Shown piece after piece: positions 32,405 to 36,838 of a DNA stretch of 50,761 bases. Every line of letters begins with the position of its first letter. The stretch's first letter is position 1. Position numbers and translations under genes: made by a program. The notes beneath the pieces are model-generated. The model was not told the DNA's origin and did not search any database. It was given only the letters and a program-made list of their open reading frames with translations. Source of the stretch: an uncultured Verrucomicrobiota bacterium (GTDB lineage Bacteria; Verrucomicrobiota; Verrucomicrobiia; Limisphaerales; CAIYYI01); the NCBI GenBank assembly GCA_903930345.1, contig CAIYYI010000679.1, positions 1 to 50,761 on the forward strand, given 5' to 3'.

Positions 32405-35400
32405 TCAAGTTTCACCCGCCACCTCCCACCCGTTATCCACGGGCAGGTCCACATGCAGGCGGGTGAAGCGCCCCGGCTCGCTTTCCACGGACAATTCGCC
32501 ATGGTGGTCTTTGACAATGCCGTGGCTGATGGACATGCCCAGACCGGTGCCTTTGTCGCGCGGTTTGGTCGTGAAAAACGGGTCGAACATCCGCTCCCGA
32601 ACTTCCGGCGTGATGCCGGTGCCATGATCCTCGATGGTCACGCGAATCCAACGGCGGCCCGCCTTCTCAAACAGGCTGGCGGCGAGGCTCAACACCTTGT
32701 CCGGATCATGGGCGGGGTAGCGCTCGTTCAGCGCATCGCGGGCGTTGGTCATCAGATTCATGAACACCTGCTGGATTTGCTGGCTGCGGCATTTCAGGTC
32801 CGGCAGATCCTCCGGCACATTCACCTGCAGCGTGATTTGGTCGCGCCGGATGATGGTGCGGATGAGGGAGAGCGTGCCATCGACGATATCCGCCATGCGG
32901 GCAGGGCTGTGCTCCTGTTTTTCATCCCGGGCGAAAGTGAGCAGGTTGCGCACAATGGTGGCCACCCGCTGGGTCTCGTTGATGATCTCTTTGGCGTACT
33001 CGGCGCTGCTGCTGTCCGGGGTGGAGGCGTCGAGGATCAACTGGGCGTAGTTCATGGCCCCATTGATGGGGTTGTTGATTTCGTGGGCGACGCCCGAGGC
33101 GAGGGTGCCAATGGATTCGAGTTTCTGTTGGTGGCGCATTTGGGCCTCCAAGGCGGCCCGTTCCTGTTCCAGACGCCTGCGTTCAGTGTGGTCATTGAAG
33201 GTCACCAGCGTTTCCTCACCCAGGATGATGCCCGAGGTTTCCACGATCCGCACGTCTCTGTTTTTGCAGGTTATTTTGTACTCAATCTGATCAATCTCGC
33301 AGGCTTCCTCGCCGGCCCGCCGCACGGCGGAATTCCAGGTGGAATGGGCCCACTCACGGTAGTGCGGATCCGGATAGGCGACCGGCCACCACGCATCGAC
33401 GGTGGGCACATCCTCCGCCGTGTAACCAAAGATTTGAATGAAGCGCTCATTCCTGAAGGTGATCACCCCATGCCGGTCCAAATGGCACAAAGGCAAAGGC
33501 ACCTTTTCCAACAATTCACGGAACCGGGCCTCACTTGCCCGGAGGGCGATCTCAGCCTGGCGGCGCTCGGCAATCTCCGCCTGGAGCGATTGGTTGGCCC
33601 GGGCCAGTTCGGCGGTGCGCTCCGCCACGCGTTGCTCCACCTCGGCATAGGCGCGGCGCAGCTCGTTCTGGGTCTGTTCCAAGGTGGTTTTTTCCCGCTG
33701 GAGTTCCCGGTTGAGCGTCCGCAATTGGGTGGGGCTGGGGATGGAGAGGAGTTTCGGCAAAAGCGGCCAGATCACCACTGCGGTGGCCAGGGAGATGGTC
33801 GCACAGAGGCTGTCCACCAGCGCCTGCCACCAGTCCACCTGGCGCCAGATCCCGATGATGTGCACCAGGTGCGTGGTGCCGCAGGCCAGAATAAACGCGC
33901 CGAACAGCACCAGGACCCAGGAAAACGGGATGTCCTTCCGTTTGGCGACAAACGCTACCAGGAACACCGGAATGGAGGCGTAAGAGACGGCAATCAAACC
34001 GTTGGCCAGCGCCATGACCATCATCAGGAGCGGGGTCATGTCATTGGCCACCGCCCCCTTGATTTCCCCCTCGGCGCCCATGGTGAGCATGGGCACCACA
34101 ATCAGGACCGCCAGCGCCATGGCGGGGGCCAGAATCCGGGCCAGATGATGGAGGAATTGCAGCCGGGGGGTCCGGTACGGGGCCTTCGTCTGTACCGGAG
34201 CGCCGCGCAGGCGCAGGCTGTTGGTCACGACGAAAATCGAGCTGAAGGCCATGGCCCCGGCCGCGATCATCGGGCTCAGCAACCCGTATCCCGCCATCGG
34301 AATCAGGGCGACGTTGTAGAACAACGCCCAGATCAGGTTCTGAATGATGGTTTGCAGCGTGGCGCGGGAGAGGGAAATCGCCCGCCCCACCCCGCGCAGG
34401 TCGCCGCTGATCAGGGTGATGCCGGCCGAGGCCATCGCCACATCGGTGCCGGTGCCAATGGCCATGCCGACATCCGCCTGGGCGAGCGCCGGGGCATCGT
34501 TGATGCCATCGCCCACCATGGCCACCACCGGGCGGGCCGTCCCGATGGCCAGAGAGCCGGCCTGCAAGTTGCGGATCATCGACGCTTTTTCGCCCGGCAG
34601 CACGCCCGCCAGAACATGGTCAATGCCCACCTCGGCGGCGATCGCCTGGGCGGTGACCGGGTTGTCGCCGGTCAGCATCACCACCTCCAGGCCAAGCTGG
34701 CGCAGTTCGGCGATGGCCTCCCGTGAGCCGGGCTTCACGGTGTCGGCGACCCCCACAACGCCCATCGGACAGACCGGGCCGGCACCGGCGGGGTCGCTCG
34801 CGGCGACAATCATGACGGTTTTTCCCCCGGACTGCAGCCGGGTGAGTTCCGATTGCAAGGCGGCGACATCAACCCCCTCCTGCGCCATCATCCGGGGATT
34901 GCCAATGAGGACGATTTGCCGGCCCACAGTGGCGTGGATCCCCAAACCGCCCGCCGCCCGGAACTGCCCTGGATCGGTCAGGCTCAGGCCCCGGTTGGCC
35001 GCCTCTCTCACCAAGGCCGCGCCCAGGGGATGCTCGGAGCCGCGTTCCGCGCTGGCGGCCAGCCGCAGCACGTCGTCCGCGGCATGGGAGGGCAGGGCAA
35101 TGATGTCGGTGATTTCCGGCTGGCCCCGGGTGATCGTGCCGGTCTTGTCCAGCACCACCACGCTCACGCGGCCCGCCCGTTCCAGGGCCTCACTGGTTTT
35201 GAAGAGGATCCCCTGCTCAGCCGCCCGGCTTGAGCCCACGAGAATCGCCGTGGGTGTGGCCAGGCCGATGGCGCAGGGGCAGGCGATGACGAGCACCGCC
35301 ACGGCATTCATCAACGCCGCCGGCCAGCCCAGTCCGGCGACGTAGATCCAGCCCAGGAAGGTGCCCAGCGCCAGCGCCAGGATGATGGGCACGAAATACC

Positions 35401-36838: not shown

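What the first reader, a model, noticed from the sequence alone, without database searches (positions are those of the whole stretch)
32405..36838. One polypeptide joins a copper ATPase, an ethylene-receptor membrane domain and a histidine kinase
Seen: one continuous 1477-codon frame has HMA domains, CPC, DKTGT and the Cu(I)-type TM motifs, and then a three-helix segment that aligns with plant ETR1 with no gap across 40 residues (SYASIP, VLVLFGAFI, CGTTHL), then PAS and HisKA/HATPase. Known: ETR1 binds ethylene through Cu(I) held by Cys65 and His69, and in Arabidopsis the separate ATPase RAN1 supplies that copper. Inference: the fusion delivers copper directly to its own receptor domain, or uses the receptor domain to sense copper flux or an olefin. 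I know of no described bacterial protein of this layout.
Basis: partly seen in the sequence, partly recalled or inferred. Interest (0 to 1): 0.95.

Follow-up and report, generated by a model that had tools for sequence, protein, structure and literature searches.

The report
Copper pump fused to receptor kinase
One bacterial protein joins a copper pump, a membrane domain related to the plant ethylene receptor and a signalling kinase; the same layout occurs in bacteria of several phyla, and it likely lets a cell sense the copper that its own pump moves rather than sense ethylene.

Summary
One 1477-codon frame (32405-36838, minus) encodes HMA domains, a P1B-1 copper ATPase, a Pfam ETR1_N domain (residues 938-1033, E 1.4e-30), a coiled coil, PAS, HisKA and HATPase. 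It is not a chimera: 114 of the 120 listed best homologues carry both ATPase motifs and the receptor domain, as do metagenome-assembled genomes of Bacteroidota, Thermodesulfobacteriota, Acidobacteriota and Spirochaetota.

New here: the fused receptor domain is a distinct subtype. Copper ligands Cys65/His69 persist, but Asp25 is Asn and Lys91 is Asp in 115 of 115 fused proteins; 120 of 120 non-fused receptors keep Asp/Lys. Changing the conserved aspartate to Asn reportedly weakens ethylene binding about 100-fold (PMC13012798). A ninth pump helix fits the topology, and five near-invariant methionines line the junction.

Best reading: a self-monitoring copper exporter, in which Cu(I) leaving the pump loads the receptor site and switches the kinase. 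Handover, ligand and signalling are inferred. The papers searched gave no description of it.

The parts
32405..36838 (-). whole fusion gene: HMA-HMA-P1B-1 copper ATPase-ninth TM-ETR1_N-coiled coil-PAS-HisKA-HATPase (1477 aa)
36413..36595 (-). heavy-metal-associated (HMA) domain with GMSCTNC, residues 82-142; the other HMA stretch of the two lies outside it
   Evidence: 2 stretches, best one given
35216..35755 (-). E1-E2 ATPase domain, residues 362-541, with the CPC metal site at 520-522 (35273-35281)
34472..35164 (-). HAD (P-domain) part of the ATPase, residues 559-789, DKTGT at 564-568
34079..34135 (-). ninth ATPase transmembrane helix, residues 902-920 (helix 891-919 in the models)
   Evidence: hydropathy; AlphaFold2 models
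34013..34081 (-). methionine-rich junction, residues 920-942 (Met920, 934, 939, 940, 942)
   Evidence: 115, 112, 115, 115 and 114 of 115 fused proteins
33740..34027 (-). ETR1_N ethylene-receptor-type membrane domain, residues 938-1033; Asn946 (ETR1 Asp25), Tyr953, Ile983, Cys986, His990, Asp1009 (ETR1 Lys91)
33542..33733 (-). long signalling helix / coiled coil, residues 1036-1099
   Evidence: AlphaFold2 (pLDDT 94-98 in blocks from residue 1040)
33221..33529 (-). PAS domain, residues about 1104-1206
32921..33109 (-). HisKA dimerisation and phospho-acceptor domain, residues 1244-1306 (His1252)
32435..32785 (-). HATPase_c kinase domain, residues 1352-1468
36876..37901 (-). upstream neighbour: DsbD_2 membrane domain plus cupredoxin-like domain (25.8 bits, just under the Pfam cut-off of 27), likely same operon (37-base gap)
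   Evidence: relatives near the fusion in L032, L042 and L047
37941..39431 (-). GAF-histidine kinase whose kinase core is 80% identical to that of the fusion (residues 1213-1477)
29231..32269 (-). downstream neighbour: CHASE-PAS-PAS-HisKA-HATPase-receiver hybrid kinase

Best explanation
The gene at 32405-36838 encodes a copper ATPase, an ethylene-receptor-type membrane domain and a histidine kinase in one polypeptide, which likely works as a self-monitoring copper exporter: Cu(I) leaving the pump is predicted to load the Cys986/His990 site of the adjoining receptor domain, which would switch the kinase. Shown by sequence: intact pump motifs, conserved copper-ligand residues in the receptor domain, an added ninth helix, a conserved methionine-rich junction, and kinase domains above the Pfam cut-off. 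Inferred: membrane topology; that copper passes from pump to receptor domain in cis; that occupancy of this site, not ethylene, is the signal (Asp25 to Asn and Lys91 to Asp in 115 of 115 fused proteins examined); that the phosphate goes to a receiver, often encoded nearby in relatives, in this window perhaps the receiver of the CHASE hybrid kinase.
For: Pump: CPC, DKTGT, YN, MxxSS and TIGR01511 above cut-off; the AlphaFold2 model matches solved copper ATPase 4bbj best, 43% identity, TMt 0.83. Receptor domain: ETR1_N 105.8 bits; Cys65 114, His69 115, Tyr32 115, Ile62 115 of 115 fused proteins. Changed pair: Asn25 115 and Asp91 115 of 115 fused; Asp25/Lys91 120 of 120 listed non-fused relatives from a separate search; in genome scans 21 of 21 fused against 1 of 52 non-fused domains with both positions readable are Asn/Asp. 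Junction: Met920, 934, 939, 940, 942 in 112-115 of 115; 118 of 120 non-fused relatives have a PH-x-x-C pattern somewhere in the chain (29 of 55 in the genome set just before the domain with a looser pattern). Topology: eight pump helices, a ninth, then three receptor helices and the kinase; in sister Chloroflexota pumps the ninth helix leads to another C-terminal domain. Signalling link: kinase core in 96 of 115; in L034, a fusion with intact receptor domain but no kinase of its own, the next gene, 22 bases on, is a hybrid histidine kinase; four complete ORFs that stop at the receptor domain without any signalling part (L048-L051) have it degenerate or truncated. Neighbours: a receiver-like gene under 230 aa within three genes downstream in 11 of 15 loci with downstream genes (by motif; both tested, in L033 and L034, are Pfam receivers). 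Precedent: RAN1 interacts directly with ETR1 in Arabidopsis (PMC12586476 abstract).
Against: No experiment exists for this protein. The Asn/Asp pair is fixed in what the domain tree shows as one clade, so it may be one event plus conservation, not many independent events. Of 115 fused proteins 19 lack a kinase core by my search, and 10 of these end in a PAS-type tail with the receptor site intact, so an intact site does not need a kinase in the same chain. Model confidence of the receptor part is low to moderate (pLDDT 48-61, 64-74), and I could not measure how it sits against the pump exit. The window has no adjacent single-domain receiver, and a cupredoxin/DsbD_2-type neighbour is seen in only 4 of 17 loci. 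The named carriers that I saw are all metagenome-assembled records. One free-standing domain also has Asn/Asp (L137). The site could bind another ligand of Cu(I), such as CO or an olefin.
Confidence: 0.55

Rival explanations
1. A true ethylene or olefin receptor with its own copper supplier built in: the pump loads copper as RAN1 does for ETR1, and the domain then senses ethylene or another gas and signals through the kinase.
For: Tyr32, Pro36, Ile62, Cys65 and His69 are kept in 114-115 of 115 and Ile35 is Ile in 110 and Val in 5 of 115. The aspartate-to-asparagine receptor is reported as still functional (PMC13012798 section 6).
Against: Asp25 is Asn and Lys91 is Asp in 115 of 115 fused proteins; the aspartate-to-asparagine change is reported to reduce affinity about 100-fold and mutation of D25 to eliminate binding in ETR1 (PMC11819568 passage). 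Many carriers come from groups rich in anaerobes with no link to ethylene known to me (inference from the names).
Confidence: 0.2
2. The kinase half controls the pump: signals read by the cytosolic PAS/GAF domains pass through the receptor-type domain, which acts as a regulatory coupling, and tune copper export.
For: C-terminal input domains vary (PAS, GAF, receivers) while pump and receptor domain are constant; some fusions have no kinase in the chain.
Against: The copper-ligand residues stay nearly invariant, which pure coupling would not need; pumps of the same clade exist with the domain degenerate (L048), truncated (L049-L051) or absent (L054, L057), so the pump does not depend on it.
Confidence: 0.15
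3. Assembly or annotation artefact joining two neighbouring genes.
For: The assembly is a draft with 709 contigs and 5.92% estimated contamination.
Against: 114 of 120 listed homologues have both ATPase motifs and the receptor domain in one protein, five of them on contigs above 1 Mb; 16 named genomes (L032-L047) carry the full receptor domain behind the pump, four of them cut at a contig end (L033, L038, L040, L047).
Confidence: 0.01

Closest known systems
Bacterial and plant ethylene receptors (ETR1, SynEtr1, AzoEtr1; Pfam ETR1_N)
   Same: Three-helix membrane domain with the Tyr32, Ile35, Pro36, Ile62, Cys65 and His69 positions largely kept, followed by a signalling helix and a histidine kinase.
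   Different: Domain is not N-terminal but follows a copper ATPase; Asp25 is Asn and Lys91 is Asp; a Met-rich junction stands where non-fused bacterial relatives often have a PH-x-x-C segment.
CopA-type P1B-1 copper-exporting ATPases (solved structure 4bbj)
   Same: HMA domains, CPC, YN and MxxSS metal sites, DKTGT, 8-helix membrane core.
   Different: Ninth helix plus receptor domain and kinase at the C terminus; about 600 extra residues.
RAN1-ETR1 copper delivery in Arabidopsis
   Same: A P1B ATPase and an ETR-type copper site working together; direct interaction is reported (PMC12586476 abstract).
   Different: Two proteins in the ER of plants, not one bacterial polypeptide; the plant pair serves ethylene sensing.
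Transporter-kinase fusions such as CbrA and Amt-type sensor kinases (recalled, no call)
   Same: A transporter and a histidine kinase in one chain; model for sensing through transport.
   Different: Those use secondary transporters or channels; here it is an ATP-driven metal pump with a separate copper-site domain between pump and kinase.
CusS/CopRS-type periplasmic copper sensing (search listing with abstract starts only: PMC10100754, PMC7763554)
   Same: Copper-responsive two-component signalling, if the inference holds.
   Different: Periplasmic sensing region and no fused pump.

Membership tests
P1B-1 copper ATPase (CopA) | CPC in TM6, YN in TM7, MxxSS in TM8, DKTGT and profile above cut-off | tested here: met
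   TIGR01511 560.8 bits against 397; structural match to 4bbj; helix numbering of the motifs recalled
P1B-1 copper ATPase (CopA) | ATP-driven Cu(I) export from the cytosol | not testable with these tools
   needs transport assay
ETR1_N / ethylene receptor | profile match of the three-helix domain | tested here: met
   PF25487 105.8 bits, cut-off 27
ETR1_N / ethylene receptor | copper ligands Cys65 and His69 | tested here: met
   Cys986 and His990; Cys 114 and His 115 of 115 fused proteins
ETR1_N / ethylene receptor | Asp25 (needed for ethylene binding in ETR1, PMC11819568) and its partner Lys91 | tested here: not met
   Asn946 and Asp1009; Asn and Asp in 115 of 115 fused proteins, Asp and Lys in 120 of 120 listed non-fused
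ETR1_N / ethylene receptor | saturable ethylene binding | not testable with these tools
   needs radioligand assay
sensor histidine kinase | H-box histidine and HATPase N, G1, G2 boxes | tested here: met
   HisKA and HATPase_c above cut-off; HEINNPINGAMNYAQL, NLMTNARDALNE, DHGTGI, GTGLGMS in the translation (box names recalled)
copper-flux sensing transporter-kinase | kinase output depends on transport or Cu(I) occupancy | not tested
   no data; tests proposed in the next steps

The most novel reading that the evidence does not exclude
A widespread class of ATP-driven 'transceptors': one polypeptide pumps Cu(I) out and hands it to a built-in ethylene-receptor-type copper site whose Asp25-Lys91 pair has been exchanged for Asn-Asp, turning a gas receptor into a sensor of the pump's own copper flux.
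Probability: 0.45. Interest if true: 0.9.

Novelty: new variant of a known kind. Interest (0 to 1): 0.75.

Why it matters
How ETR-type sites receive their copper is still being worked out, and what such domains sense outside plants and cyanobacteria is little studied. A natural covalent pump-receptor fusion makes copper handover directly testable, and the Asn25/Asp91 subtype is a natural experiment on the residue pair thought to couple ethylene binding to signalling. If copper flux is the signal, P-type ATPases would join the transporters that double as receptors.

Tried and rejected
Chimera: rejected for the architecture. Plain ethylene receptor: not accepted because Asp25/Lys91 are exchanged. 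Plasmid search: no place covers 80% of a 361-residue junction query among the 5000 best records (capped); of the 8 records listed, 7 are annotated there as copper-translocating ATPase and 1 has no annotated feature.

Limits of the samples. One search listed 120 of 4042 and one search listed 120 of 1764 proteins, both ranked by similarity. Genome scans by PF25487, seed genomes counted: fusion only in G000 among 97 relatives and 387 genomes of its phylum; G486, G487, G600, G664, G757 among 344 of the order of G487; only G491 among 345 and only G495 among 297. From these scans I read 83 loci; my own profile recovered a domain in 76; L134, L135, L138, L139, L153, L157 and L171 were not recovered and are not in the counts. 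Three truncated rows (L018, L129, L152) lack one of the two positions or were left out of the domain tree. Exception to the Asn/Asp rule: L137, a 138-residue free-standing domain with no ATPase among its neighbours. The two model alignments used 67 and 47 of 120 homologues; the ATPase tree used 60 rows, among them 18 of the 121 proteins. In that tree L047 was labelled 'other' by my pattern although it is fused, so its count of label changes is too high, and L003 and L005 are long branches. Neighbours were listed for 17 loci; L038, L040, L048, L174, L176 and L177 were not included. Of 19 fused proteins without a kinase core, 10 end in a conserved PAS-type tail, 2 have other kinase families in the precomputed Pfam list (P0068, P0091), 7 end abruptly and may be cut. 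An earlier wording, that pumps without a kinase have a degenerate receptor site, was wrong as stated and is replaced: it holds only for the four ORFs without any signalling part; L034 shows the missing kinase as the next gene.

Full report
What is there. The window encodes on its minus strand, at 32405-36838, one open frame of 1477 codons. Pfam finds two HMA stretches, the E1-E2 ATPase and HAD parts of a P-type pump, ETR1_N at residues 938-1033 (105.8 bits, E 1.4e-30), PAS, HisKA and HATPase_c; NCBIfam places the pump in the copper-translocating subfamily TIGR01511, 560.8 bits against a cut-off of 397. The genome is a draft of 7.2 Mb in 709 contigs with 5.92% estimated contamination and shows no other ETR1_N match. 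Its class also holds genome G184, whose 4,730,447-base contig has the length of the contig behind P0122, named Nibricoccus aquaticus, a member of Verrucomicrobiota; so the host is most likely in that phylum, contamination aside.

Not an artefact. A protein search with residues 800-1060 gave 4042 proteins at E <= 0.001 among 7997 scored; the best 120 are listed, and 114 of these 120 have both CPC and DKTGT in the same chain as the receptor domain (the 115 used below are these plus the window). Names given by sources include Syntrophobacter, Opitutaceae, Bacteroidetes and Gemmatimonadaceae MAGs. A scan of named genomes gave 17 loci (L032-L048), all MAG records, from Syntrophobacteraceae, Bacteroidales and other Bacteroidota, Desulfuromonadales, Geobacter, another Deltaproteobacterium, Acidobacteria, Holophagaceae, Geothrix and Spirochaetaceae; L033, L038, L040 and L047 are cut at contig ends and L048 is degenerate. 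The fusion is patchy: only G000 among 387 genomes of its phylum, five among 344 of one Bacteroidales order, one among 345 and one among 297 in two other phyla, counting the seed genomes.

The receptor domain is a distinct subtype. Against ETR1 numbering (sequence recalled; the seven positions read as expected), the 115 fused proteins have Asn at Asp25 (115), Tyr32 (115), Pro36 (114), Ile62 (115), Cys65 (114), His69 (115) and Asp at Lys91 (115). A separate search with a non-fused 1081-residue receptor kinase listed 120 of 1764 proteins, none with both ATPase motifs; all 120 have Asp25 and Lys91. Both lists are ranked by similarity. The genome scans are less biased: of 76 domains recovered from 83 loci, 21 are fused and all are Asn/Asp (one of them, L128, degenerate); of 55 non-fused, 52 have both positions readable, 43 are Asp/Lys, one is Asn/Asp and eight are other pairs. 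The fused domains form one clade (99/95) inside the non-fused ones, so this may be one change kept in all descendants examined rather than repeated evolution. [quoted passage not shown] A review reports that a conserved membrane aspartate, salt-bridged to a conserved lysine, gives about 100-fold weaker ethylene binding as asparagine (PMC13012798 section 6); it does not number the residue, and I equate it with Asp25. PMC6586836 passages link Cys65 and His69 to copper and report femtomolar copper affinity for the ETR1 domain.

The junction. After the eighth pump helix comes a ninth (902-920), then a short loop and the receptor helices. A P1B pump ends in the cytosol (established knowledge); one added helix would put the start of the receptor domain outside and its end inside, the orientation a cytosolic kinase needs. 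In the pump tree the sister Chloroflexota proteins (L052, L053, L055, L058; 98/87 with the fusion clade) share the ninth helix but carry another C-terminal domain; the one tested, L058, has no Pfam match. Between the ninth helix and the copper site, Met920, Met934, Met939, Met940 and Met942 are kept in 115, 112, 115, 115 and 114 of 115. Among 120 non-fused relatives, Met stands at the position of 939 in one and at those of 940 and 942 in none (one row not aligned there), and 118 of 120 have a PH-x-x-C pattern in the chain. I read the methionines as a Cu(I) path; that is inference.

Link to signalling. A kinase core is found in 96 of 115 fused proteins; of the other 19, 10 end in a PAS-type tail, 2 have other kinase families and 7 end abruptly. 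The tail-bearing ones keep the receptor site; in the one whose neighbours I have, L034, the next gene 22 bases downstream is a hybrid histidine kinase, followed by another kinase and a single-domain receiver. Four complete ORFs of the same pump clade without any signalling part, L048-L051, have a receptor domain that lost His69 and Tyr32 (L048) or is cut short (L049-L051); two more pumps nested there, L054 and L057, have lost the ninth helix and the domain. So the domain is seen intact where a signalling part is present. In 11 of 15 loci with downstream genes a receiver-like gene under 230 residues lies within three genes on the same strand, nine of them immediately next (by motif, two checked by Pfam). 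The window is among the four exceptions; its downstream neighbour is a CHASE hybrid kinase with its own receiver. A cupredoxin/DsbD_2-type gene lies one or two genes before the fusion in the window, L032, L042 and L047, 4 of 17 loci.

Structure. AlphaFold2 of residues 231-1100 (mean pLDDT 73.9) matches copper ATPase 4bbj best, TMt 0.83; the receptor part is at 48-61. A second model of residues 890-1110 (79.1) shows four membrane-length helices and a long helix; the receptor part is at 64-74. The placement of the domain against the pump exit is therefore not known.

Reading. Best supported is a copper exporter that monitors its own output (confidence 0.55): shown are the parts, the conserved ligand residues, the junction and the exchanged pair; inferred are topology, copper handover, ligand and phosphate flow. 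Rivals are a gas receptor with built-in copper supply, and kinase control of the pump.

Literature. Ten full-text searches showed no title or abstract start about a P-type ATPase joined to an ethylene-receptor domain, and passages found with ATPase as a term in PMC6682694, PMC6944256, PMC5285503 and PMC11819568 do not mention one. The other listed papers were not opened for this, PMC3485614 among them. The library lacks most subscription papers; PMC10266040 was not held, and the review by Papon and Binder (2019), cited in PMC6944256, was not looked up.

Noticed in passing
window 29231-32269 (-): The gene right after the ethylene-receptor-type fusion is a hybrid kinase with a CHASE domain, the input domain of plant cytokinin receptors (recalled); two plant-hormone-receptor-type inputs sit side by side.
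   Followed up: no
window 39988-41193: Three copies of a 191-base repeat (74-100% identical) with inverted-repeat parts lie around a Y1 (IS200-like) transposase gene at 40114-40941, a REP/RAYT-like arrangement next to the kinase operon.
   Followed up: partly
window 41224-47262 (-): URO-D, two B12-binding proteins, a heme oxygenase (44128-45447) and a histidine kinase lie on the same strand: a corrinoid methyltransfer-like set beside a possible CO source.
   Followed up: no
L052, L053, L055, L058, L060, L063: Chloroflexota copper ATPases whose ninth helix leads to another C-terminal domain with Gly/Met-rich stretches; no Pfam match in the one tested (L058). Four of them are sister to the fusion clade.
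   Followed up: partly
L172 5908-6324 (+): A free-standing 138-residue ETR1_N protein with the Asn/Asp pair, no ATPase among the neighbouring ORFs and a PAS-like protein two genes downstream.
   Followed up: partly
window 37941-39431 (-): The kinase core of the fusion is 80% identical to that of the GAF kinase two genes upstream, suggesting recent exchange and perhaps a shared partner.
   Followed up: no
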